Assembly (NCBI RefSeq): GCF_000003815.2 | Contig: NC_049988.1 | Coordinates: forward strand, 611,679 to 675,678 | From: Branchiostoma floridae | Lineage: Eukaryota > Chordata > Leptocardii > Amphioxiformes > Branchiostomatidae | Length of the DNA stretch: 64,000 nucleotides | Direction: 5' to 3' | Part shown: positions 3,701 through 32,790 of the stretch, one piece after another | Position numbering within the stretch: position 1 is the first letter of the stretch | How the letters are laid out: every line of letters starts with the position of its first letter | Notes under the pieces: model-generated | Database searches by the model: none | The model's input: the letters and a program-made list of their open reading frames with translations, nothing else | What the model was told of the DNA's origin: nothing | Translations under genes and position numbers: made by a program

Positions 3701-6700
3701 CTGGACTTATATGTCGTGCGATTGGCTCAAGATAGAAAAGTAAGGCATTGTTGCAGGCGTGTTAAGGCTATCGTCACATTTCCAATTCGTGGCCCGGCAG
3801 GGCTGTTTGTGGAAACAAAAAAATAGAAATGTATACGTAAAGATATATATATATATATATATATACAAATAATGCCCACGACTATTCTCTTTGCGTCTTG
3901 AGTACTTTGGTGCCTTTTACATTCCAGAAAGCTGCCCGCCCGGGCCCCGGTTTGGAAATGTGACGTAGGCCTTAGTGGCTTTTATCTTACATCCTGAAGT
4001 CCGAAAGGTTCTTTCACTGCCTGCTTGAAAACCATACATAATAATTGGTGATATCGAATTACTTAACTCCCTGCCAATACCAAGGCTAGGAAAATTGAGA
4101 CTGTCTTGCTATTAGTAATTGTCTGCTATTTTTCTTAATGTTAGGTGGAGGGCCGATGGCGCTGGTTAGACGGATCATCTCTGAGCTACCAGAACTGGGC
4201 TCCGGGACAACCGAGTAACTATAACGGCGCTGACTGTGGCATCCTGTGGGGGTCCTACCACTATGATAAGTGGGATGACTCGGTTTGCTCGTACAGATTC
4301 TACTCTATCTGTCAAAAAGGTTTGATGTATTGATTAACTAGATAGTTGACTTCATTCACACAGTAGACATACTTTGATATAATGTTTATCTTTGTCCTTG
4401 GGATACTCAGTATAAATTCTTAGGAGTAAACTCTGCGATGTGTACTTGTTCTAGTTATTTACTATAATCACAAAGCGAGAGAATAATGTAAAACTTTACA
4501 TTTCGTCCAGAAATAAGGTTGAAAAGTTATTACAGTAATCTTAATCTCATCTAGGAACTGTTGTTAACACACTATTATCATTCGATGAAGTATCTAGGCA
4601 TACACTTATGAGTATTACCTTGATATCTATCAATCTAACTTTATTGTTTGCAGCTATAGTGACGATTAAGTTTACTTCGATTTCTTTATCTACTGTCTCT
4701 AGATTTGAAAAAAAACTTGAAGAGTAACTTGTACTTTGTAACTAATACACTGTCTGAGGGAGGTCTCCGTGAATTGTGCGAAAATCAGTATTAGAATATT
4801 GAAGTCCATAGTTCACTTTCACACCAGATTTATACCGATATGGTCTGGTCATCATATAGAATTACTGGTGGTATATTTAAATGTTTTGAGAAAGTTATCT
4901 TTAGCATGTCACTGTTTTGACTCAGAGATCAACGAATGTTCCAGTAACAACGGAGGCTGCGAACATAGCTGTGAAAACACTGTCGGGAGCTACCGCTGTA
5001 CCTGTAGGACTGGGTACCAGCTGTATGGTTCAAGATACTGTAGAGGTAAGTGATAATATACGACACTAAGAATTGTCTCTAAATGGTTGAAACTCTCCGT
5101 GAAATACTAATTCTTCAACTCTGCAAATTGCGTCAAACCGTAGCCAGATCTAGATGTTAGAATATACAGGAAGTTCCCATATATATTATACATCTATTAC
5201 ATTTATTGATTGATAATAATAAAAAATGCATTGATAAATGAAATAAACAAAGTGTGGGTTGGAAGCTGTTATCATTGATGATAAACATTTATTGTGGAAA
5301 TACTACTTTGGAATCAACAAAGTTTGTCATATAGCCTTGGCGGCTAAGCATGCCATACGCTCTGCCTAGCGTATCAAACCAGTGTCACGGCCGAGAGGGC
5401 GTTTTGTCGCGTTTGGCAACACAGGATTGCCAGCCGAGAATTGGACTGTACAGTCACGGGATTCAGAGGACCTGTTGCATGAGGTAGTGTGTGTCATCGT
5501 TTCTTCAGACGGAGGGAGGCCGATGTTGAAGACTAATCTCCAAGCAGATCCTACGATGGCATAAGATAGTACTAAACTGGTCAAGGAGTGTAGTCAGCCA
5601 AGTGTCCATTCCCCGGTAGCGAAACACGCTCCTAAGCCGGCTTCACTCCTCTGCCAGCTTTTGATACTATCTTATGCTACCGTAGGATCTGCTTGGAGAT
5701 TAGTTGAAGACGGATTATACAAGAACCTCAACACGGCCGCGTGCCCCTTTCGTGATGACATGACGTACACAATGACGACGCGTTCACGCCGCTATTAGCG
5801 TTTCCCGACTATTTCCTGATACTACGGCGTACACAAGGACTGCGCGTTCGGGCATGGAGCCTGATAATACTGCCTGGTCACTCTGTGAATAAGCTTAAAT
5901 AATAGCAGGTAAAGCGATGGTTACAGCGTTTGATCTGCGATAGTTGAAAAGTTGACTGTGACCCTTACCCTTTACAGATGTAAACGAGTGCTCGAGTAAC
6001 AACGGAGGATGTGACCACAACTGTGAGAACACTGACGGGAGCTACGACTGTACCTGTCGGGATGGGTACCAGGAATCTGGATCAAGATGCTACGGTTCGT
6101 AGATATCGGGAATCGAATCATTTCAAGTTATTTCTTAATATCAAGATATTCCATGTTACATTCTACAAACAGTGGGGTATATTTGGCAGTTTACACCAAA
6201 GTTAAAATGATCAAATCAAACTTGCGTTTTGGTACAAAGATAATGGTTCACCGTTACAACCGGCTTCTTAATTCTCAATCTGTTGACACATTATTAAAAA
6301 AATATGATGTTTTGGTTATCGGTTAAATCTATTAAGCTCAAGAATACCACTCTTTTTTCCCTCTTAGATATAAACGAATGTTCCAGTAATAACGGAGGAT
6401 GTGACCACAACTGTGTGAACACTGGTGGGAGCTACGACTGTACCTGTCGGGCCGGATATCAATTGTCTGGATCAAAAGATTGCATTAGTAAGTGTTGTTT
6501 ATTTGCACAAGAAAATAATCAAATAAGAAATAATAAGAAATGATAACAGCACAAGTATGCAGGGCCTTAAACTGCCAAGCCCTGATATATACACACATAC
6601 ACCCTGTACGGGCGTCGGCCTTGTTCGGGGGTTCTTTTCGGAGGTCAGCGGCCAATCCTGGTACTGAGAGCATTTTATTGGGCTGAAACTCTGGCAGTTT

Positions 6701-18700: not shown

Positions 18701-21700
18701 CTTTCTTCGTCAACACCCAGGCTGATGACGACTTTGTGGGGTTCGTCTTCAGCTATCAGAGCAACTCCCGCTTCTACCTGGTGTCCTGGAAACAGGCAGG
18801 GGACAGCGAGGGAGGACAGGCTGGGGTACAGCTGAAGGTATAATCTTTCTATTGTGCTGTGTAGCTTATCTTCCCTAAGCACATTCTTGATTCAACTTCA
18901 CTTTACTGTATTTGAATGTGAACTCTCCGGTGATTGTGACAAATATACAAACCTATTGCCATTATAACGGATTGTTTTGATATCATTGTTTAGATGTACA
19001 GCGCTGTACCCTTCATGGTCCGCCTTTTGAACAAGTACATGTAATTGTCTTCTCAGTGCAGTGTTTTTGAATCAAATAGCATTATGTATTTTAGATAATT
19101 ATGTAATGATATTAATGTGTTAAGTAATACTATATTAAAGGTTTTGGTAATGACACTTCATTTTATCCCAATACTGTTTTAATTTGTCTGTCTACAACGC
19201 TTTTTAACGAACTGTGTTATTGCTTCGATTTTAACCACTTTGATGTTAACGGTTTGTAATGACAAGTCGTAATTCAGCCGTGTGGCTGCAATGTCAATGT
19301 CAGTTTGTTGAATTTCGAAATAAACCAGTCATACATATATAGATGTAGGCATGGAATAATTGGTGATGATAGTAATCATTGGTGGCATAACATTTTCAGT
19401 TCAAGCTGCTATTTGCTTTGACCTGTTTAAAAAATCCCACCATAAAAGACATCATTCTGAGTAACTAGCAGAGAGCCCATCAGCCCCATTTCGTCATGGC
19501 GTCAGAAGTTTGAAAAGATTATCTGTTTGTCACCAGTTGGTAGACTCGACGACCGGACCTGGTCATGACATGTCGCTGGCTCTATGGAAGGGAGTGGAGG
19601 TCCCGGGACAGGTTAGTTTGTTCCATTACTGTATATAGCTGAAAAAGATTACCGATAACAACATTACCCAAAACTTTGAGGTTTAGGAGTTAAACCGGTA
19701 AAGAGTGGTAGCCGTTGTGTTTGATAGATATAAGCGAGAAGCAGCACTCCAGTCAGAAGCTTGAGGATGATTTCTGATAGACAGATAAGAAACAGTGTAA
19801 AAGGAAATTCCGATAAACTAGAACATTTGCCTGTTTTCCCAGACCAAGCTGCTGTGGGAGGATCCTAACAAAGTGGGGTGGAGCTACAACACCGCCTACC
19901 GCTGGGAGCTGAAGCACCGGGCGGACATCGGACTCAGCAGATAAGGTGAGTTCAGGTTTCTTTGACATTTTTGGTTTACTCCCAATCAACATACACTTGG
20001 TCTTTTTTGCATTCAAGAAGAGTTTGTTTAAACGCACCCATTCACATATGTTATTCATGTCTGTCTGTAACTTAACCGTAACTGTCTCAACTGATGGCGC
20101 ACACGCATATGCTGATGTATCGTCTGCGTACATGGCGGGGGTGGTCTCCGTCACGGTAAGTGGCAAGTCGTTGGTAAAGATCGTAAACAACAACGGACCA
20201 AGGCAACTCCCTTGAGGAACGCCACAGTGTATCTCTCTGAAGGTTGAATTCGTGCCGTTGAAGTGTACACACTGTTTTCTCCCTGTCAAGGAACTGCCCA
20301 TCCAACCAACCGCTGTATCTGAGAAACCGTAGCATGTCAGTTTTTGCAACAAATGACTGTGATCCACCAAGTCAAAAGCAGCGGAGAAATCCAGAAAGAT
20401 GACCCCGACTAGGAAAACTAAGGCCCCAAAGACTCAACCACGTGTAGTCTACAAAAGGTCCTACGTTGAAAGTCGTCTCGGTGGAACTTGCTGTAGGACC
20501 TTTTGTAGACTACAGGTGGTTGAGTCTTTGGGGCCTTAGTTTTCCTAGTCAAGTAGATAATGTTGTGGTCTGAAAAGCCCACAGCCGTTGATTTAGCTGA
20601 TGTACACTTTTCCTGGCAGTTTGTAAAGGCCAGATCAATACAGGTAGTTGTTCTATGATGCCTCTTGTTAACTGCAATCCTGGTAGGGGCTGTCACCGTT
20701 TGAAATAGGTTGCATCTTACTGCAGTTTGTGCTAAACGTTCCTTCAGTGAACACTCTGAGTTGGACCAGTCAACATTAAAGTCCCCTAGTACGAAGACCT
20801 CTTTGTTCGCGTCTGTTGCGTTGTCAATGGCATCCAGGATGCCGTCGAAATACTGAACTGAGGATCCAGGCGGTCTATAAATACAGCTGACCAGCATTGG
20901 TTTGGACCGTGGTACATTAACCTCTAGCCACAACATCTCGACATTATCATTTTCAAGTTCATTTCTTTCTTTCCAAGAAAACCCGTCCCGTATTAGAAAG
21001 GCCACACCCCCTCCATGCCGATTACGATCCTTCCTGACCACTGACCACCCATCAGGGCACAGTTCGTTGTCGTTTACACTAGAGTCCAGATGTGTTTCAG
21101 TCAGCGCAAGAATGTGAAAACTGTTATGGTCCAGTAATCCCTGCAGTTCGTGGGTTTTGTTTCTCCAGCTGCAGATGTTCAGATGGCCCAAGTGAATTCC
21201 CTTTTTAGGTAAGTGTAAGTCTGTTGGACCTGGATTGGTATCTATGTCTCCACAAAGTAGTATCAATACACACATGACTACTTTAACTGGACAATCGCAG
21301 TTTGCATAACTCAGGTGTTGTTTTGTTTTCATGACAGTACTGGCCCATTGTTATACACATCTTTGGTACATGTTTAGTTTTTACAATATTCCAAGAACCA
21401 TCATCAATCTCGTGTTTACTTAACTGACCGATACATTCATGTGTGCTATGAGATGAGCTATACACAGTTCTGGATATTGGTAGCAAGATTGAAAGACATA
21501 CTATATATACTGTGTACAGGCTGACGAGCGACGGCATTTTACTTGAAATCCTAAATGTTTGTAACGTACAATAGCAGCAACTTATTTCTCACTCTTAACT
21601 AGCTATAAGTATAACAACAGTGATAGACATATAACCCTAAAAATTACTATCTAAAAGCTGGTACATAACAAGCAACAGTCAAGGAATGAAACGCAATGAT

Positions 21701-22624
21701 CTTCTCAAATTTGCAGCTGTTTTGAATTTACATAACAATGGGGTTAAAATGCTTATACTAAACGCTTACAGATCAATTACAAAACAGATCACAGGAAAAT
21801 TTACTACTACTCTATCTAACACTGCACTCAGTCTAACGTGGTCTTGCTACAGTAGAATATTGCGCAAACTAGGAGTAAAATAGCACAGATTATCATAAAG
21901 GTAGTGCAGGGAGGTAAGAGGTCTTCAGAGGCGTGCCCTCCCCACTATTGTCATCAACAACGGTGGGGTTAACAGACTATCAAATATAACAATTTGCAGA
22001 AATAGTTATGTAAAAATGATACAACTAGGTTGTTCTTGGGTATCTAAGTATTGAATTGGATACCATAAAGAGCATAGATTAGCAAAGGAAATGGTTGGAT
22101 TTTTGTGGATTGATAATGAACTTTTCTTGGAACAAAAAATATGGCTACCTGTAAGCTGATGAACTCTGACCTGTGGTGGACTCAGGTGACGTTCTAAAGT
22201 CTGATCCCTCTGTCTCTGTTCCTCCAGGTTCCACCTGTACGAAGGCAGCCGCCTTGTGGTGGACTCAGGTGACGTTCAGGACGCCTCCCTCCGCGGAGGC
22301 CGCCTCGGGGTGTACTGTTACTCCCAGGAGAACGTCATCTGGTCCGATCTCGTCACCAAGTGCGATGGTGAGGAATCACAAATATCGCTTTGTTCAAGCA
22401 AAATACTAAAAACATTAACCAAGAAAATCTTTTTCGTTCAGCAGAAGACAAAGGAGTATTCAACTGGCGTTTTGTAGAAAGGAGGGGATCTTTTTATCAA
22501 TTTGGTTGCTTTTGTAACCAGTGGTACCTTCTTTCAGCATACCTTTTATATTTTTCTCCTTTTTTCAAATACCCGTGCGTAATGGTAATACGTTGTGTTT
22601 GCAGGTGACACTTCATCCGTGTAA
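741..22624 (+). CDS. Secreted mosaic protein: C-type lectin, 9 EGF, Sushi-like, GCC2/3, thrombospondin type 3 and C-terminal domains (30 exons)
   Basis: Assembled by eye from 30 GT-AG exons whose phases all join: about 1311 codons if the native splice at exon 28 is used. Order: signal peptide (residues 1-18), CTLD (19-146), nine EGF modules (147-504), Sushi-like (505-577), unrecognised domain (578-748), GCC2/GCC3 cysteine module (749-803), thrombospondin-type EGF (804-862), type 3 repeats (863 to about 1090), thrombospondin C-terminal domain (to the end). Thrombospondins are calcium-binding matricellular proteins, and the C-terminal 'signature' is specific to that family. Unlike them this protein has no laminin-G-like N domain or oligomerisation coiled coil and carries a lectin domain instead. 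A stop in exon 28 (19942-19944) would end the protein at about 1259 residues unless an unusual donor is used. Function is inferred: a secreted or matrix adhesion or recognition protein. The assembly is strong; the exon 14 start and a possible exon in the 12242-12341 gap are uncertain. Confidence 0.85.
965..1368. mobile_element. hAT-like MITE, family D
   Basis: Perfect 19-bp terminal inverted repeats TAGGGGTGGGTACCGGTAC and an 8-bp target duplication GTTGGCCT (957-964 and 1369-1376), as for hAT elements. Interior has CAGGTCC-type repeats and no transposase. Other copies in this window: 17505, 30776, 40692, 44163. Confidence 0.88.
1726..1934 (+). CDS. Exon 2: C-type lectin domain, N-terminal half
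   Basis: Encodes the first half of a short-form CTLD, with the conserved EARC cysteine, the HLAII strand and the WIG core motif. Odd: the core reads WIGCSD, with an extra cysteine where Leu is usual. Acceptor TTTCAG, donor GTATAA, phase 1 to 0. Confidence 0.88.
2521..2862. repeat. 60-bp minisatellite, about 6 copies
   Basis: Units of GTACGATGTACGATGTACGA plus an AACTTAAAAAATC tract, almost identical, exact period 60. Because 60 is divisible by three it leaves open frames on both strands, which are not genes. Confidence 0.95.
3040..3285. repeat. Tandem repeat of about 77 bp, 3 copies, inverted relative to the 60-bp array
   Basis: Units share ATCGTACATCGTACATTAGG, then GTCCGCCCCATGTACGAAC and CATAACCCACA. 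The core is the reverse complement of the core of the preceding array, so the two could pair. Confidence 0.88.
4145..4319 (+). CDS. Exon 3: C-type lectin domain, C-terminal half
   Basis: Continues the CTLD: W-L-D-G, the long-loop [17 protein letters not shown] (WND position) and the final SVC and SIC cysteines. QPS replaces the EPN or QPD sugar-specificity triplet, so calcium-dependent sugar binding by the usual site is doubtful. Ends in phase 1. Confidence 0.9.
4926..5045 (+). CDS. Exon 4: EGF module 1
   Basis: [16 protein letters not shown] start with six cysteines, the calcium-binding EGF type. One module per exon, phase 1 at both ends. Confidence 0.92.
5531..5705. repeat. Inverted repeat with about 42-base arms
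   Basis: Arms 5531-5572 and 5663-5705 are reverse complements with few mismatches, flanking about 90 bases. Probably a palindromic MITE remnant in intron 4. Confidence 0.75.
5978..6094 (+). CDS. Exon 5: calcium-binding EGF module 2
   Basis: [16 protein letters not shown] consensus with an aromatic-Gly-Tyr tail. Donor GTTCGT is weaker than its neighbours. Phase 1-1. Confidence 0.9.
6368..6487 (+). CDS. Exon 6: calcium-binding EGF module 3
   Basis: [16 protein letters not shown], a close relative of modules 1 and 2, suggesting local exon duplication. Phase 1-1, donor GTAAGT. Confidence 0.92.
6888..7001 (+). CDS. Exon 7: calcium-binding EGF module 4 (twin of module 7)
   Basis: [16 protein letters not shown], a Notch-like hydroxylation-type calcium EGF. 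It differs from exon 10 at only five of 114 bases, although their flanking introns do not resemble each other. Phase 1-1. Confidence 0.93.
7610..7738 (+). CDS. Exon 8: calcium-binding EGF module 5
   Basis: [18 protein letters not shown] with Y-G-S-Y-R-C core, fibulin or fibrillin-like. Phase 1-1; donor GTCAGT. Confidence 0.9.
8009..8131 (+). CDS. Exon 9: calcium-binding EGF module 6
   Basis: [16 protein letters not shown] with six cysteines and a C-G-C-E-D-G-F tail. Closest to module 8 (exon 11). Phase 1-1. Confidence 0.92.
8871..8984 (+). CDS. Exon 10: calcium-binding EGF module 7 (twin of module 4)
   Basis: [16 protein letters not shown]. The last 64 bases are identical to those of exon 7, and the donor GTGGGTG is shared. 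Phase 1-1. Confidence 0.93.
9703..9825 (+). CDS. Exon 11: calcium-binding EGF module 8
   Basis: [16 protein letters not shown], paralogous to exon 9. With the exon 7/10 pair this suggests block duplication of several EGF exons. Phase 1-1. Confidence 0.92.
11006..11119 (+). CDS. Exon 12: EGF module 9
   Basis: [16 protein letters not shown] with a F-L-G-E-R-C end. It lacks the full D-x-D/N-E-C calcium motif. Phase 1-1. Acceptor GTTAACAG has a poor pyrimidine tract. Confidence 0.87.
11365..11583 (+). CDS. Exon 13: Sushi (CCP)-like module
   Basis: 73 codons starting [14 protein letters not shown], with Cys-rich pairs, Y-T-C-R-A-D-G-S-W and a terminal W-P-D-C. This is the Sushi/CCP signature with a longer middle loop than usual. 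Phase 1-1. Confidence 0.8.
11768..11908. mobile_element. Palindromic MITE-like element
   Basis: Arms 11768-11825 and 11847-11908 are near-perfect inverted copies apart from a 4-base indel, around a loop of about 21 bases. Intron 13. Confidence 0.75.
12242..12341. other. Assembly gap, 100 N
   Basis: Exactly 100 N, usually a placeholder of unknown true size. It lies in intron 13 and could hide sequence or an exon. The sequence to its right (12382-12444) is also found right of the second gap. Confidence 0.98.
12609..13121 (+). CDS. Exon 14: unrecognised extracellular domain
   Basis: About 171 codons. The start is uncertain: three AG sites (before 12609 and about 36-39 bases downstream) give the same frame. 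I do not recognise the domain. It has alternating beta-like hydrophobics, few cysteines and two N-glycosylation sequons (NMT, NCT). By position it resembles the spacer between EGF and cysteine modules of SCUBE proteins. Phase 1 at the 3' end. Confidence 0.78.
13407..13571 (+). CDS. Exon 15: GCC2/GCC3 (ephrin-receptor-like) cysteine module
   Basis: [10 protein letters not shown], then C-E-Y-C-P-V-G-E-Y and C-K-P-C-P-V-N-T-W. The C-P-P-G-T and C-x-x-C-P-x-G pattern is typical of SCUBE, SVEP1 and ephrin-receptor-like modules. Phase 1-1. Confidence 0.88.
13714..13778 (+). CDS. Exon 16: first half of thrombospondin-type last EGF
   Basis: [21 protein letters not shown]. Short, phase 1 to 0; joins exon 17 at Lys-Cys to complete the six-cysteine module that precedes the type 3 repeats in thrombospondins. 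Confidence 0.8.
14318..14595. repeat. Imperfect tandem repeat of about 58-60 bp with palindromic core
   Basis: Repeated GAGGGGACTCCCCTC cores separated by CACGCTGTCTTCAGGTCC-like spacers. It ends about 55 bases before exon 17. Confidence 0.75.
14650..14760 (+). CDS. Exon 17: end of last EGF and first thrombospondin type 3 motif
   Basis: [14 protein letters not shown] followed by [11 protein letters not shown] and C-K-K, colinear with the EGF-to-type-3 junction of vertebrate thrombospondins. Phase 0-0. Too short and in the wrong frame to stand out as an ORF; found by homology. Confidence 0.87.
15007..15114 (+). CDS. Exon 18: thrombospondin type 3 repeat
   Basis: [13 protein letters not shown], then D-x-D-x-D calcium loops ending DMDNDGLPN. 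Phase 0-0. Donor GTAGCT is weak. Confidence 0.87.
15450..15890 (+). pseudogene. LINE fragment: C-terminal end of a retrotransposon polyprotein
   Basis: An open stretch ending in TAA encodes KLRFYKTC, then [18 protein letters not shown] and a C-x2-C-x8-H-x4-C zinc-knuckle-like motif, the tail found after the reverse transcriptase in several animal LINE families. No start or reverse transcriptase is present, so it is a 5'-truncated relic inside intron 18. Confidence 0.7.
15931..16090 (+). CDS. Exon 19: two thrombospondin type 3 repeats
   Basis: Two DNCP units with [12 protein letters not shown] and [12 protein letters not shown] calcium loops. Its acceptor lies about 40 bases after a LINE fragment. 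Phase 0 to 1. Confidence 0.93.
16206..16284 (+). mobile_element. SINE 3'-tail fragment
   Basis: Matches in reverse complement the tail of the SINE at 44563-45059: CACCCCGTAAGGGGCGGTAT and CACGTCGACCGATGACGATG. Only the tail survives here. Confidence 0.6.
16359..16477 (+). CDS. Exon 20: thrombospondin type 3 repeats
   Basis: [29 protein letters not shown]. Strong acceptor (pyrimidine tract then CAG). Phase 1 to 0. Confidence 0.93.
16582..16634 (+). CDS. Exon 21: short thrombospondin type 3 exon
   Basis: [17 protein letters not shown]; 53 bases, phase 0 to 2. Completes the loop opened at the end of exon 20. Confidence 0.87.
16758..16843 (+). CDS. Exon 22: thrombospondin type 3 repeat
   Basis: [20 protein letters not shown] then DTDKDGAG. 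Phase 2 to 1; joins exon 23 within GDVCD. Confidence 0.9.
17323..17418 (+). CDS. Exon 23: thrombospondin type 3 repeat
   Basis: [11 protein letters not shown], then [12 protein letters not shown]. The seven-Asp run is encoded by GAT/GAC repeats. Phase 1-1. Confidence 0.92.
17505..17946. mobile_element. hAT-like MITE, family D, second copy
   Basis: Same CAGGTCC-rich interior as the copy at 965, decayed TIRs (TAGGGATGGG and CCACCCCTA) and a near-perfect 8-bp target duplication CCGTACAC/CCTTACAC. Intron 23. Confidence 0.8.
17970..18142 (+). CDS. Exon 24: last type 3 repeat and start of thrombospondin C-terminal domain
   Basis: [17 protein letters not shown], then D-D-V-C-P-E and the [13 protein letters not shown] entry into the C-terminal L-lectin-like domain. 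Lies just after a hAT-like MITE (17505-17946). Phase 1 to 0. Confidence 0.93.
18318..18366 (+). CDS. Exon 25: thrombospondin C-terminal domain
   Basis: [17 protein letters not shown], matching the conserved G-x-E-x-x-Q-x-x-N-S/C-D-P-G segment of thrombospondins. Phase 0 to 1. Confidence 0.92.
18665..18837 (+). CDS. Exon 26: thrombospondin C-terminal domain core
   Basis: Contains [26 protein letters not shown] and [10 protein letters not shown], the family signature. Phase 1 to 0. Confidence 0.95.
19537..19611 (+). CDS. Exon 27: thrombospondin C-terminal domain
   Basis: [19 protein letters not shown], equivalent to the 'NSTTGPGEHLRNALWHTG' region of thrombospondins. 75 bases, phase 0-0. Confidence 0.92.
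19843..19940 (+). CDS. Exon 28: thrombospondin C-terminal domain, with disrupted donor
   Basis: [21 protein letters not shown] onward to IGLSR. The phase needed to join exon 29 puts the native end after base 19940, but the next bases are ATAAG and the nearest GT donor is at 19946. Splicing there adds ATAAG and an in-frame TAA at 19942-19944. A LINE fragment starts immediately after. Confidence 0.87.
19950..20410 (-). pseudogene. LINE reverse transcriptase fragment
   Basis: Residues [11 protein letters not shown], then [20 protein letters not shown] and the catalytic YADDT, ending at KKPELTL. Palm-to-thumb portion only. The open frame continues antisense through exon 28, but that part is not retroelement. 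Same reverse transcriptase group as the copy at 48454. Confidence 0.85.
20407..20550. repeat. 58-bp inverted repeat inside the LINE
   Basis: Arms 20407-20464 and 20493-20550 are reverse complements with one mismatch, around a 28-base loop. It sits exactly where the middle of ORF2 is missing. Confidence 0.93.
20418..21332 (-). pseudogene. LINE ORF2 N-terminal part: 2A-like peptide and APE endonuclease
   Basis: 304 residues. After a hydrophobic leader comes GDIDTNPGP (residues 28-36), a 2A-type ribosome-skipping motif with Asp for the usual Glu. Endonuclease motifs follow in order: [37 protein letters not shown] and a catalytic SDHN. The last 15 or so residues are translated from the inverted duplication and are not native. 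An overlapping frame upstream (21283-21537) has another hydrophobic start, so the true N terminus is probably frameshifted. Confidence 0.82.
22172..22277 (+). repeat. 23-bp direct repeat of exon 29 sequence in intron 28
   Basis: A perfect 23-base copy of exon 29 (22255-22277) lies at 22172-22194, 83 bases upstream and before the acceptor. Confidence 0.9.
22228..22367 (+). CDS. Exon 29: end of thrombospondin C-terminal domain (possibly not translated)
   Basis: [14 protein letters not shown], then [13 protein letters not shown] and S-D-L-V-T-K-C, the usual family ending. Entered in phase 2, so it is in frame only if the five bases after exon 28 are excluded. Confidence 0.87.
22605..22624 (+). 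CDS. Exon 30: last codons and native stop
   Basis: Acceptor TTTGCAG; GDTSSV then TAA at 22622-22624. Phase 1 agrees with exon 29. Short terminal exon, so less certain than the rest. Confidence 0.65.
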
Positions 22625-22824
22625 CATGGGACAAACAACCCAAATGGACGAAGGAAAACAAAGATGGAAGCTGTCACTTCTATCGGCTATTTTCATCTTT
22701 CGTGATATAAACTCTAGTAATTGATTTAGTCAAGTAATACATTACTTTGCGTACAGTACGTAACAAGGTGTGTTCATTTACTCAAGATTAAGAATGCGCA
22801 GTATATATACCCAAGAAAGTGAAC

Positions 22825-22830
22825 AATAAA
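22825..22830 (+). terminator. Candidate polyadenylation signal of the thrombospondin-like gene
   Basis: AATAAA about 200 bases after the stop codon in exon 30, followed by an A-rich and then GT-rich stretch. The first canonical signal after the coding end. Confidence 0.55.
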
Positions 22831-24548
22831 GAGCATATTCAAAACACCTTATCTTGTGTGATCCTACCTTGTAGAGTGGATGTGACGTGTTGAGATACGT
22901 CAATATACATGTTGTCGAAGAGAGTCAACAGTCATTTGCATATATAAGGCCACAGCAAGTAAATTTTATGGATGACATTAGCGAGCTCAATAATTTTCGC
23001 CTGATTTCAGAAAAAAGATTTTTGTCCTCTTCGAGGATGGCCAGATAGACCAAAATAGGCAAGCATGTTGTGTTGTAGCCTAGAGCTAATAATAATACTT
23101 GTAGAAGTGACACTAGGGAGGTAGCCATGACTACAGTTGCAGAAGTGAAACTTGTTGGATAGTTGTAAGAGTGCCACCAATATGGAAGCAATGAATGTAT
23201 TTACCACCTTGGCAAGTGATACCAGTGCACCACACTAGTATCACTTTTACTACACTAGTTTACTTCTTTAATTCAGGAATGAATGCCTTGTTAGTAATGC
23301 CACGTTTAGTCACTTCAGATCTTGTTACGGCATTTATGGTGTCTATTTTGAAAATTCAGCCATATTGTTTTATTTTACTCATCTTGTTGTTTTATCGCAC
23401 TTTCTCATCACTTTTTTCTCTTCCGCTCAAGAGCGTCCTCTGTGTGTTCAAGTAGGAAGTGCAGATTGGCGATGTTAACATTGCGCACCAGCTTCCTAAC
23501 GCTTAATATGGCCATCCTGAATACTGCCTGTTCTTTTCAAGACCGTGAGACTCTTGAGAAGACTAGAACGAACAGGAATTCGGTACTAACTAAATTGCTA
23601 ACTATTAAATTACAGCGGAAGGTAAATCCACGGCAAACTCAATTCCACAGAAAACTCCCCTCCTCGGCAAAATCCCTTTCCCGGCACAAGAGAACCTAGC
23701 CAACGTTGAAAATCGCGAACCAACAACCCCCCCCCCCCTTCCCTAAAATAAATACCAGCCCCGTTCGAAGACTGCAACGGAGGCTAGTATTTATGTATAA
23801 GTTTCGAGGCATTTGTTAGAGAGGGTAGATTATAAGATGCACCGAATAACGTTTTCCTGATTGATTTCTGTCACTGATGACGTCACTGAGTCGTGTGATG
23901 ACACCCACAGGAGGTCATGTGACGTCTTGTGACGTAATGACGCGTGTGCGTAGGCGGAAATCCCCCACCATGCGTGACTGTACGTTTTGTATCAAAGACT
24001 CGGTACATTTGTAGGTCATATCTGACAACATGAAATATCAGTATTAACTCCAGGCGACCAGAAGATAAGCTCTTGAAATGCCATTTTTGCTCGGATGTAT
24101 ATTTTCTCTTTGGTTTCTGATGTCCTTAAGCATTGTTCGGGCGCGAAGAAAGCATTTTCCTACGCGCGGACAGACAACATAAAATGTTTCCTTTAGGCAT
24201 TCTCTGATTGGCTGACAGCTGGTTGTAAGCCACGCCCATAAAAATGACATGGAAACCTTAGGCCGGTTTAGCAGAGCCTTTATATATTGTTTTGGCTATA
24301 GGCCACGCTCTGTGGAGGAGAATGGAAAAAAAGACAATCATACAGACGATGAAAATTCGCTAAGATCATGTGTGTACTTGAGACGTGTGAGATTCATTTT
24401 AAGAGTCAGGTTGCAGTTCTACTTTTGTACTTTCGAGCAATATTTACCACAAACATAAAACTAGCCTTTAAAAGCTAATTTTCCATCAGGTCTAAAGGAG
24501 AGAGAGAGAGAGAGATGGTTAATTAGATTAAGAGCTGTTGCAGCCTAA
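22831..24548. other. Intergenic, no gene seen
   Basis: AT-rich sequence between the two genes with short open frames lacking family resemblance. It holds a C10 run near 23730 and a cluster of TGACGT motifs near 23878-23945. Confidence 0.6.
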
Positions 24549-25123
24549 AGCCCCCTTCACACGAGAGCAGGAATGAGCCAGGAATGCCGTCGGAATGAAA
24601 ATTCTTTTCAATTCCTGGCGATTCGTATTGTGTTCTAACTGCATTCCAGCTATTCGTGTCCGTTCTTTTGGCTAGCCAGAAAGTTTTTGACATGTTACAA
24701 ACTATCGAGGTGCATTCGAAGTAGAGAAATATCGAATGACATTCAAAGTGGATTCTACGTGTATTCTAACCATTCCTACTGCAGCCTTACAGCATTTTGC
24801 GGCATTCCAACATTATTCGAAACATCCTTATCTCATTCGATGGAGAAGCGAAACGGCAAGCCATCTCGAATCCTGCCAGAATGTGGCCGAAGTAATATCT
24901 GGAATGTAGTCGGAATGTCTAGAATACACTACGAATGCAAAGGAATAGAAAAGAATTTTCATTCTGACGGCATTCTTGCTCATTCCTTCTCGTCTGAAGG
25001 AGATTTAAGGCCTATCTGGAATTCCCACCCGAATGGCCCCGAATGTGGCACGAAATTTGCAAATGATTCATTCCGGTTGGTTCTGCTTGATTCCTGCTGA
25101 TTCCGTTTCAGTGTGAAGGCCCT
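24549..25123. mobile_element. GAATG/CATTC-rich MITE, family F
   Basis: Dense GGAATG and CATTCC words, with ends CCTTCACAC and GTGTGAAGG inverted. Shares long segments with 51553-52152 and, reversed, with 60726-61304. The 137-codon frame inside it is not a gene. Confidence 0.75.
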
Positions 25124-25244
25124 ATAAGGGCTGAATTGCAAGTTTTTGTACATTGTTCTCTTCACATTAACGGTATAAGTACGTGCATACAACATGTTAG
25201 ATTCGTTAAAACTCACGTGTCCTATTCTTTAATAAAACACTACA

Positions 25245-27204
25245 AGTTTTCATTGAGGAGTCTGACGCAATAGTGTAGAGTACTGTTACTAAACCGGGAC
25301 GTCCTACGTCCTATTTGAAACTGGTCAAGCTGACATTATTTCTTAAAGTTCTGTTGTGGACATCCCCCCGCCGCAATATCAATGGGAGTCATGAACTGTA
25401 TCTGCTGGAGTTCGCAAGAGATTGCGCATATCTAAGACATATGCTCTCACTTTGGACGGGGATCGGTGACCTTCGTACCCCGACCGATCCCCCAAAACTG
25501 ACGTCATCCAGCTCAAGAGGACAAGTTCAACCTTCATGGTAGTTTACAGGCCAAATATGAAATGTCCCTTTTAGAGTTCGCAGATTCACATGGAGTGCTA
25601 TTTTCGTGCTGTTTGACGTCAACTTTACCTACTGTTCTCATTTTTTCTCTCCAAACCTCCCATTGCAATTACTGTGTATAAAAAGCATTCCTCACTATGC
25701 GAACGTCTGGACATAGAGATAAGGAAATTGTTCGGAGAAGTCACAGAGCGTTACCGTTAACGTTAACGTTACGCACAGCGAGGGTTGTTGCGTTCAGGCG
25801 ACGCCCCGTCTACATCCGTCTGCCTGTCCGGCATAGATAACAGGGGCAGTCAGACGGGTTAAGTTCATCGTACTCCTACAAGTGCAGACAAAGGGGGACG
25901 GCTTATGCGAGGGTCACAGTTCCAAACCGGTAATATGTGGGAACAAAAACTATGATATAACAGTAACATAACTTTAAGAGAAAATGAAACACAAAAAGCG
26001 TAAAAAGAATGAGTCATGAGCATACTTTGCGTATACTGTAAATGTATTCAAGTTCACGGGGATTTAATTTCGCGGTAGCGAGAAAAAGGACTTTTCGCGG
26101 TGGTTTTAAGTTCGCTTTAGCACCATGCACTTAAGTCTCTTAATGACATGGAAAAATGTTCGCGTTGGTTTTAAGTTCGCGATGAAGGGGCAACCGCGAA
26201 CACCGCGACCATTAAACCACCGCGAAAGCCTCTGCATTCACAGTATTTCGTGATATTACGTACAGTTTTTATTTTTCTTCGAGCCCTGGTTTAAAATGTT
26301 ATCCCAGTATAACTGGGGTATGCTTTAGAACTATTTCTTTACAAACCCACCAAGGAAATTATATATAACGTTTATATATAATTGATGTGAATAAAGATAC
26401 TTCAATACATGTATAAGCTGTGAAAGAATCTTATGGCATTTCAGGTGCAACACATGATTCCGTCTCCGCAACAAGACTGCAGACTTTCGCACGACACTTC
26501 CAGGAATGGCACCAATTTGCTGTTGTAAACCAATCGTACGACGTACACGACAGAGCCCTTAGAGAAATATGACTAATAGTAATACACGCACTACATTCAT
26601 ATTCTATATTTGTTGGAATCCATCTGTCTCGGAAGACAATAGTAGAGAGACAATGTGGGTTAGGCGCCCCGTCTGCCTGGCCTGCATGTGACTTTTTAAG
26701 GTGAAGTAGGGATGTACACTTCCTTCTCCACCCTCTCGTCTACTGGCGCACTACTAGTAAGTCCTACAGTGGCAAGTGCGTGCAAAGTGTAAGACGGCCC
26801 CCACAGATGCTGGTTTGTTGTTTGGAGTTTCCGTCTCCTAGGAGGACTTCCGACCAAGGATGCAAGGATTCCTACCCCTGACTCGTGTATGGCGGGTGCG
26901 TCAAGCCCGAACATGCCCCTATGGTCTGCCACTGCCACCAGCCGCAGCTAGAGATTCCCCGAGTGCAGATGACAATGACTGCTGCACAAAACCGGCATCT
27001 TCACATCCCTGGCGGCGGGAATGACAGATCGCCCACGGCGTCGCCCCGCCGGCACCAGGAGCTTTAGCACAGTTCCTGTTGACGTGATTGACGTTGTCTG
27101 TACCAGATAAAACATGACGCACACGTCACGCGCTAGTCTATTATCTTCTTGTTGGAAATCCTGCGAAGAAATGCACCTAAAATATCGCTGTGGTTACCGT
27201 CACG
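25245..27204. other. Intergenic stretch outside the MITE, no gene seen
   Basis: Apart from the family E element at 26035-26244 I see only short unsupported frames. TGACGTCA occurs near 25499. Confidence 0.5.
26035..26244. mobile_element. Palindromic GCGGT MITE, family E, copy 1
   Basis: Ends ACTGTAAATG and CATTCACAGT, with repeated TTCGCGGT and ACCGCGAA that allow the element to fold on itself. About 210 bp; five related copies in this window. Confidence 0.78.
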
Positions 27205-31635: not shown

Positions 31636-32790
31636 TATAAAGTTAACATGAATGTAAATTTGCATCGCGGGAGACAGCGAGCTAAATCCGATTCTGACAA
31701 TAGATACTTAACGTTGTATACGACGTTTGGTACAAGACGATTTTTCAGGCTTCTCTTGTCGGACATATCAAAGAATGGAGTTCAATGAACGCGCTATGTA
31801 CATGTCAAACAGTGACTGGGATATAGGAGAATTCTTTTTGTAAAACACAACCCGCAGGTACTTACACTGCTTACGTTTCGATGTCTCTCAGACATCTTCG
31901 TCAGAGCTTCTAAGTGGAGTTCTGCTTCTCACCGCTATATGTAGCCGATGTAGGTGGCGCTTTTGCGGTGAGAAAACAATCCCAAACGGGGTTAAGCTTG
32001 CATCCCCCCTCGTCCCTGTTCATCACTGGGGTTGACTTTCTTATCCAGATCGCCGTGCCCGCCTGTTGTCTTCCCTGTCTGTGACTCCCCCCCCCCCCAC
32101 CCCCAAGACATCTGCTAAAAGAAGAAAAGAAGTCGGCAGTTACAGGCCATATATCACCAGGAACAATTGCGTAATTGACAGGGAGGGGACGAAGGTACCT
32201 GCTAGTTGTGTAAAAAGAATTCTCCTATATCCTATATTCTACCAACCTAATGAAACTATTTTCTGAAGTGACACGTGACTGTTTAATTTTTCTGCAAGTG
32301 GAATCCTCCTTTACACTCATCAAATTTGTATTTGTCCGTGAACAAGATATGATCAAGAATAGCTGAGTGAATTGGTTTCATATTTGGTGTGTTGGTGGGG
32401 TGTGATGAATACCGGAAATAATTAGATTTTGGGCCCCTTAGCGACTTCCCTTGGTACCGTAGTGCGACTTCCGGTTTTTCTATCTCGTATTCTGAACAAG
32501 CTATGCCACAATTTTTGGGTGTTAGATACATGTAACGTTAGCTCTTGTTTTTTTATTTATTTATTGATCTTTAGGGTAGTCCCTTCGATAGTTCTTTTGT
32601 TTGCCCGCCTTTTCGTTGATTCAATCTGTCACTTCAGACAATTCATGACTTTCGTCCACCCTTCCTTCCGTCATCCTACTTTCATCCCTCTCTTTAATAC
32701 ATCTATTCATTCAGTCATCCATTCCTACTTCCTTCCTTTCTTTCTTTCTTCTACCATTCTACTCCATTCAATTGGCTGCAGTCACTATTC

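What the first reader, a model, noticed from the sequence alone, without database searches (positions are those of the whole stretch)
19843..22367. LINE fused to an exon end, supplying a replacement splice donor that brings an in-frame stop
Phases show exon 28 should end at 19940, yet the following bases are ATAAG and then GTGAGT. The GTGAGT lies in sequence that reads, on the minus strand, as LINE reverse transcriptase (PELTL). A deletion seems to have removed the native donor and the LINE 3' end together. The LINE-derived donor then adds ATAAG and the TAA at 19942-19944. The last 50 or so residues of the thrombospondin domain would be lost, and two downstream junctions would make the mRNA a target of nonsense-mediated decay. 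Alternatives: a rare AT-AG intron starting ATAAGG, or an assembly error.
Basis: partly seen in the sequence, partly recalled or inferred. Interest (0 to 1): 0.85.

Follow-up and report, generated by a model that had tools for sequence, protein, structure and literature searches.

The report
Jumping gene clips a thrombospondin gene
In this lancelet genome copy, a retrotransposon fragment is fused onto the end of an exon of a thrombospondin-like gene, so the normal splice signal is gone and a substitute signal from the transposon would cut the protein short by 52 residues; it looks like a young, ordinary kind of disabling allele.

Summary
Exon 28 of a thrombospondin-like gene (TSP_3, TSP_C) runs directly into an antisense LINE. 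Seven of seven paralogues examined end this exon ...ATCAG or ATAAG, then GT. The window reads ...GGACTCA|GCAGATAAG|GTGAGT. GCAG, the stop and the new donor are LINE sequence.

The LINE keeps its 5' end (22171) but lacks about 0.8 kb at its 3' end, the opposite of normal 5' truncation. It also has a ~1 kb internal deletion with a 58-bp foldback. Its donor scores highest of 4128 + strand GT sites in the window (recalled table). Use of it puts TAA at 19942-19944, removes 52 residues and leaves a junction 141 nt downstream, a setting for nonsense-mediated decay. Exons compared from 11367 on are otherwise open; dN/dS is 0.22.

LINE divergence (0.9-1.9%) lies below published lancelet diversity (about 4%), suggesting a young, probably polymorphic allele. 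Splicing and decay are inferred; no RNA was available.

The parts
19537..19611 (+). exon 27 (phase 0 at both ends), donor CAG|GTTAGT
19843..19936 (+). exon 28, host-derived part (TSP_C), ending ...GGACTCA; the last 3 bases (19934-19936, TCA) are shared by exon and LINE
19934..19936 (.). junction overlap TCA between exon 28 and LINE
19937..19945 (+). LINE-derived exon extension GCAGATAAG, with in-frame stop TAA at 19942-19944
19946..19951 (+). LINE-derived antisense splice donor motif AAG|GTGAGT; AAGGTGAGT present in 6 of 7 other LINE copies examined
19934..22171 (-). LINE (Exo_endo_phos and RVT_1 parts), 5' end at 22171, about 0.8 kb of its 3' end absent
20407..20550 (.). 58-bp foldback (arms 20407-20464 and 20493-20550, 28-nt spacer) at the site of a ~1 kb deletion inside the LINE
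22172..22227 (+). remnant of an 83-bp tandem repeat that carries the splice acceptor (three paralogues hold 5.6-6.0 copies)
22228..22367 (+). exon 29, end of TSP_C; behind the stop if the LINE donor is used
22605..22624 (+). last coding part (exon 30, ...DTSSV stop); AATAAA at 22825

Best explanation
This is a gene-disrupting allele. A LINE inserted antisense into intron 28, within an 83-bp acceptor-bearing tandem array. A later deletion then joined exon 28 at TCA to a TCA inside the LINE. Judged by the paralogues, it removed the last four native exon bases, the native donor, the start of the intron, all but about 1.3 array units and about 0.8 kb of the LINE's 3' end. Transcripts are then most likely spliced from the LINE's antisense donor AAG|GTGAGT to the old acceptor at 22227/22228. 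The message ends ...GLSR-stop, lacks 52 residues including the end of TSP_C, and is expected to be degraded by NMD, or to give a misfolded protein if some escapes. Shown: the anatomy, the missing native donor, the frame and the stop. Inferred: order of events, donor use, NMD, and polymorphism in the population.
For: Paralogue donors: 7 of 7 examined have GT at the exon end. The LINE side of the join is seen in 3 near-identical copies and 4 relatives. The LINE 3' end is set by 6 other copies that share it with C6 (L013 1993-1998); four of them end early towards the 5' side, as target-primed insertion predicts (two of the four re-aligned). The 5' end: the window and three further copies stop at L013 6015-6018; those three belong to another LINE that shares this 510-bp 5' part. 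The donor scores 12.3 bits against 4.5-8.7 for the native donors of six paralogue loci, and its U1 duplex energy is -10.7 against -6.5 to -8.5 (score table and U1 tail recalled). Stop to next junctions: 1 and 141 nt; skipping exon 28, or using the best GT inside the exon, also gives early stops. TSP_C profile coverage is 3-197 of 198 with normal splicing and 3-149 when truncated. Exon blocks from 11367 on are open, and over exons 24-29 dN/dS is 0.22, 0.14 and 0.20 to three paralogues. LINE divergence K2P is 0.009-0.019, against pi 0.0397 (PMC12862219, passages seen).
Against: No RNA and no second haplotype were available, and one reference haplotype cannot show the order insertion-then-deletion. 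A search for a second haplotype of the downstream flank did not complete. No target-site duplication can be tested because the 3' flank is gone. Three bases of overlap at a join are weak evidence for any one repair pathway. An ATTAAA at 20775 leaves room for intronic polyadenylation, which would avoid NMD.
Confidence: 0.6

Rival explanations
1. One-step origin: the LINE was laid down by endonuclease-independent retrotransposition at a double-strand break. The broken end of exon 28 (...GGACTCA-3'OH) paired with an internal site of the LINE RNA and primed cDNA, which ran to the RNA's 5' end and was joined to the far side of the break in the array. The effect on splicing is the same.
For: Geometry fits: the exon end lies at an internal LINE site, the LINE 5' end lies at the other side, there is 3-nt complementarity, and intron sequence present in paralogues is missing. 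PMC9237045 (passages) says EN-independent insertion is hypothesised to occur at damaged DNA and need not start from an intact LINE 3' end.
Against: In the same paper, insertions at Cas9 breaks were found to start at the LINE 3' end and to be 5'-truncated, unlike here. Such EN-independent events are rare among LINE insertions (recalled). The internal foldback contains sense-strand LINE sequence that cannot be copied from LINE RNA directly, so at least one DNA-level event is needed anyway.
Confidence: 0.25
2. The native intron is still removed as an AT-AG intron (CAG|ATAAGG ... CAG), with or without A-to-I editing of 19941, so the stop is bypassed and full-length protein is made.
For: It restores the frame exactly...[10 protein letters not shown]...DTSSV. 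AT-AG introns and edited ones are reported in human (PMC4176328, passages).
Against: A strong GT donor lies 5 nt downstream; the AT site has donor score 1.4 and U1 energy -4.8 (tables recalled). Base 19941 is not in any of the 4 inverted repeats of 16 nt or more found at 19500-22700, so no local duplex for editing was seen.
Confidence: 0.06
3. Assembly artefact: a false join between exon 28 and a LINE from elsewhere, for instance during haplotype merging.
For: The published B. floridae assembly, which this genome may be (not confirmed by a call), came from about tenfold Sanger reads of one diploid animal merged with HaploMerger2 (PMC7269912, passages).
Against: No N run at the join; the LINE ends cleanly in the same gene's array and differs from the C6 copy at single bases and by a private foldback. 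Reads of Sanger length would span the join (inference; no reads seen).
Confidence: 0.07
4. The whole gene copy is an old pseudogene and the LINE fusion is one of many lesions.
For: Three other close copies exist in the genome (C10:372k and two on C180), so one could be free to decay.
Against: No other stop or frameshift was seen in the exon blocks compared from 11367 on; exons further upstream were only looked at for open frames in nine blocks. dN/dS is 0.22 to the nearest paralogue. On the window branch 7 synonymous and 5 non-synonymous changes were counted (in which one small exon was read in a wrong frame).
Confidence: 0.02

Closest known systems
Retrotransposon-derived splice sites (exonisation; antisense LINE donors)
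   Same: An antisense LINE supplies a strong donor motif that would change a host transcript (anatomy shown; use inferred).
   Different: Here it replaces the exon's own donor and adds a few bases to an existing exon, rather than creating a new internal exon.
Retrotransposon-associated deletion alleles / endonuclease-independent LINE insertion
   Same: LINE 3' part missing, host sequence lost at the join, short overlap.
   Different: Which of the two routes made it cannot be decided from one haplotype.
Thrombospondin C-terminal domain proteins (COMP 3fby, TSP-1 1ux6, TSP-2 1yo8)
   Same: The normally spliced end matches them over TSP_3 and TSP_C (E 2.7e-76 to 1.3e-74).
   Different: This allele, if spliced at the LINE donor, lacks TSP_C profile positions 150-197.

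Membership tests
Thrombospondin-like gene (TSP_3 + TSP_C) | TSP_3 repeats followed by TSP_C over Pfam cut-off | tested here: met
   TSP_C 254 bits (cut-off 25.6), TSP_3 34.3 bits (cut-off 25) on joined exons 24-30
LINE (non-LTR retrotransposon, apurinic-type endonuclease) | Endonuclease and reverse transcriptase domains on one strand | tested here: met
   Exo_endo_phos 1e-11 and RVT_1 2.1e-20 on the minus strand
Ordinary target-primed LINE insertion | Intact 3' end, truncation if any at the 5' end | tested here: not met
   3' ~0.8 kb absent, 5' end present
Ordinary target-primed LINE insertion | Target-site duplication | not testable with these tools
   3' flank lost in this haplotype; no empty allele available
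Endonuclease-independent LINE insertion | 3' truncation, overlap at the join, loss of target sequence | tested here: inconclusive
   All three present, but a later deletion gives the same picture
Retrotransposon-derived splice donor | Donor motif lies in element sequence present in other copies | tested here: met
   AAGGTGAGT in 6 of 7 other copies examined, AAGTTGAGT in C6
Retrotransposon-derived splice donor | Transcripts use the donor | not testable with these tools
   no RNA data held
NMD target | Stop more than about 50 nt before the last junction (rule recalled) | tested here: met
   141 nt to junction 29/30, assuming splicing at the LINE donor

The most novel reading that the evidence does not exclude
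A chromosome break at the end of exon 28 was healed by reverse transcription of a LINE RNA primed by the broken exon itself. In one step this destroyed a splice donor and installed another, giving a segregating truncation allele of a thrombospondin-like gene.
Probability: 0.25. Interest if true: 0.45.

Novelty: new member of a known kind. Interest (0 to 1): 0.32.

Why it matters
It is a clean, base-level example of a mobile element both removing and replacing a splice donor in a constrained gene with close spare copies. In a lineage with about 4% diversity it should be polymorphic, so the effect of the donor swap and of NMD could be read directly in heterozygotes. It also warns that a reference gene model ending at ...GLSR may describe one damaged allele and not the species' gene.

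Tried and rejected
Contig C155 carries a 139-bp piece 98.6% identical to exon 29. I thought it might be the other haplotype and fetched C155:90001-122251 of 122251 bases. Apart from one 92-bp match at 83.7% to window 31819-31910, nothing else of the window aligned there at E 1e-20, so I do not take it for an allele. The C180 and C10:372k copies were also considered as alleles and rejected: their aligned exon blocks are mostly 84-96% identical (the block around exon 27 in L009 only 73%), and their intron 28 gave no match to the window outside the 83-bp array.

The three further LINE copies sharing the 5' end (C12, C13, C17:12.06 Mb) match C6 only over L013 5508-6018. They resemble one another beyond that point, so they belong to another LINE with the same 5' part. 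They support the position of the 5' terminus, but are not full-length copies of this family. The genome searches scored only the best 40 candidates (of 216, 355 and 612), so copy counts are lower bounds.

In one search exon 25 was read in a wrong frame; the dN/dS values I rely on come. The polarised counts (window branch 7 synonymous, 5 non-synonymous; L009 branch 9 and 15) come only. L010 lacks part of exon 24 and all of exon 25 in these alignments.

Papers. A search with the terms 2a-like, amphioxus and retrotransposon gave 0 papers. A search for thrombospondin with amphioxus and Branchiostoma floridae listed 15 papers; none was opened and no title concerned this gene. Searches were seen as listings; passages were seen of PMC12862219, PMC7269912, PMC2881922, PMC9237045 and PMC4176328. 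I make no claim that such an allele is absent from print. A search of window 22170-26000 for a second haplotype did not complete.

Full report
What was checked. The window lies at G000:C10:611679-675678 of a 513.4-Mb, 431-contig genome. The gene is thrombospondin-like. Joined exons 24-30 hit TSP_3 and TSP_C over cut-off and the solved ends of COMP, TSP-1 and TSP-2.

The junction. Exon 28 begins at 19843 in phase 0. Seven paralogous loci were compared (C10:372k, two on C180, C4, two on C19, C1). All seven end ATCAG or ATAAG followed by GT. Four other TSP_C clusters on C1:23.2, C2:15.9, C10:14.56 and C10:14.65 Mb were not aligned. The window reads GGACTCA GCAGATAAG GTGAGT. LINE copies on C17 and C3 read GTCAGCAGATAAGGTGAG, and C6 reads the same with AAGTTGAG. 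The join therefore lies in TCA, 19934-19936.

The LINE. On the minus strand, endonuclease and reverse-transcriptase parts are found. Against the C6 copy the window holds L013 2796-3271, an inverted 4304-4361, and 4276-6017. Six other copies share a 3' end with C6 at L013 1993-1998, and four of them break off early towards the 5' side (C11 and C8 re-aligned), as target-primed insertion predicts. One more copy (C4:33.4 Mb) starts 34 bases further in. Only 40 of 355 candidates were scored. At the 5' side the window and three further copies stop at L013 6015-6018; the three belong to another LINE with the same 5' part. The window copy thus has its 5' end and is short by about 0.8 kb at its 3' end.

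The far side. At 22172 the LINE meets an 83-bp tandem repeat that contains the splice acceptor and the first part of exon 29. The copy numbers are 6.0, 5.6 and 5.8 in three paralogues and about 1.3 in the window (22172-22277). The missing units and the missing native start of the intron fit a deletion, or loss at a break.

Expected transcript. Among 4128 GT sites on the window's + strand, only 19946 reaches its score of 12.3 (human-like table recalled). Native donors of six paralogue loci score 4.5-8.7. Spliced there, the message ends GLSR-stop. The stop lies 1 nt before junction 28/29 and 141 nt before junction 29/30. Skipping exon 28, or using the best GT inside the exon, also gives early stops. 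Of the outcomes tried, only a cut at 19940 (AT-AG) restores the frame. The truncated form keeps TSP_C profile positions 3-149 of 198, the normal form 3-197. One ATTAAA at 20775 lies in the intron and AATAAA at 22825 behind the gene, so intronic polyadenylation is not excluded.

Age and state of the gene. Exon blocks from 11367 on, compared with the C10:372k copy, are open; nine blocks further upstream were only translated. Over exons 24-29, dS is 0.242 and dN 0.053 to that copy. LINE divergence from C6, C17 and C3 is 0.9-1.9%. Published B. floridae synonymous diversity is 0.0397 and the mutation rate 5.89e-9 per base per generation (PMC12862219, passages). If 1.9% is split equally between the two copies, the insertion is about 1.6 million generations old, against about 3.4 million for the mean coalescence of two alleles; if all of it fell on the window copy, the two ages would be about equal. 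The allele is therefore probably, not certainly, polymorphic. LINE source copies may be under constraint, which adds error, and the argument assumes the species.

Origin. Insertion followed by deletion, and one-step endonuclease-independent insertion primed by the exon end, both fit. The second explains the 5' end and the lost intron in one event, but the foldback needs a DNA-level step anyway, and Cas9-break insertions in PMC9237045 started at the LINE 3' end. I favour two steps, because deletions in and beside repeats are common (general knowledge).

Verdict. It is a well-resolved example of a known kind of event; what remains open is donor use, decay and population frequency.

Noticed in passing
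L009 3035-3536, L010 3397-3846, L011 3431-3910; remnant at window 22172-22277: 83-bp tandem array spanning the intron 28/exon 29 boundary, so that three paralogues hold several near-identical splice acceptors in a row (6, 4 and 6 counted by motif); 83 is not a multiple of 3, so reading on from an earlier acceptor shifts the frame.
   Followed up: partly
C155:110749-110887 (L046 749-887): A lone 139-bp copy of exon 29, 98.6% identical to window 22234-22372, in unrelated surroundings and followed by GTAAGA.
   Followed up: partly
window 20407-20550: 58-bp foldback with 28-nt spacer marking a ~1 kb deletion inside the LINE; 3-bp overlap at one side, none seen at the other; resembles templated insertion during end joining.
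   Followed up: partly
L013 5508-6017; L032 5019-5532: The first ~510 bp of this LINE are 95% identical to the 5' part of a different LINE (C12, with a 1003-codon open frame), suggesting exchange of 5' regions between LINE families.
   Followed up: partly
window 20418-21350, minus strand: LINE frame contains GDIDTNPGP, resembling the 2A ribosome-skipping motif (motif recalled).
   Followed up: no
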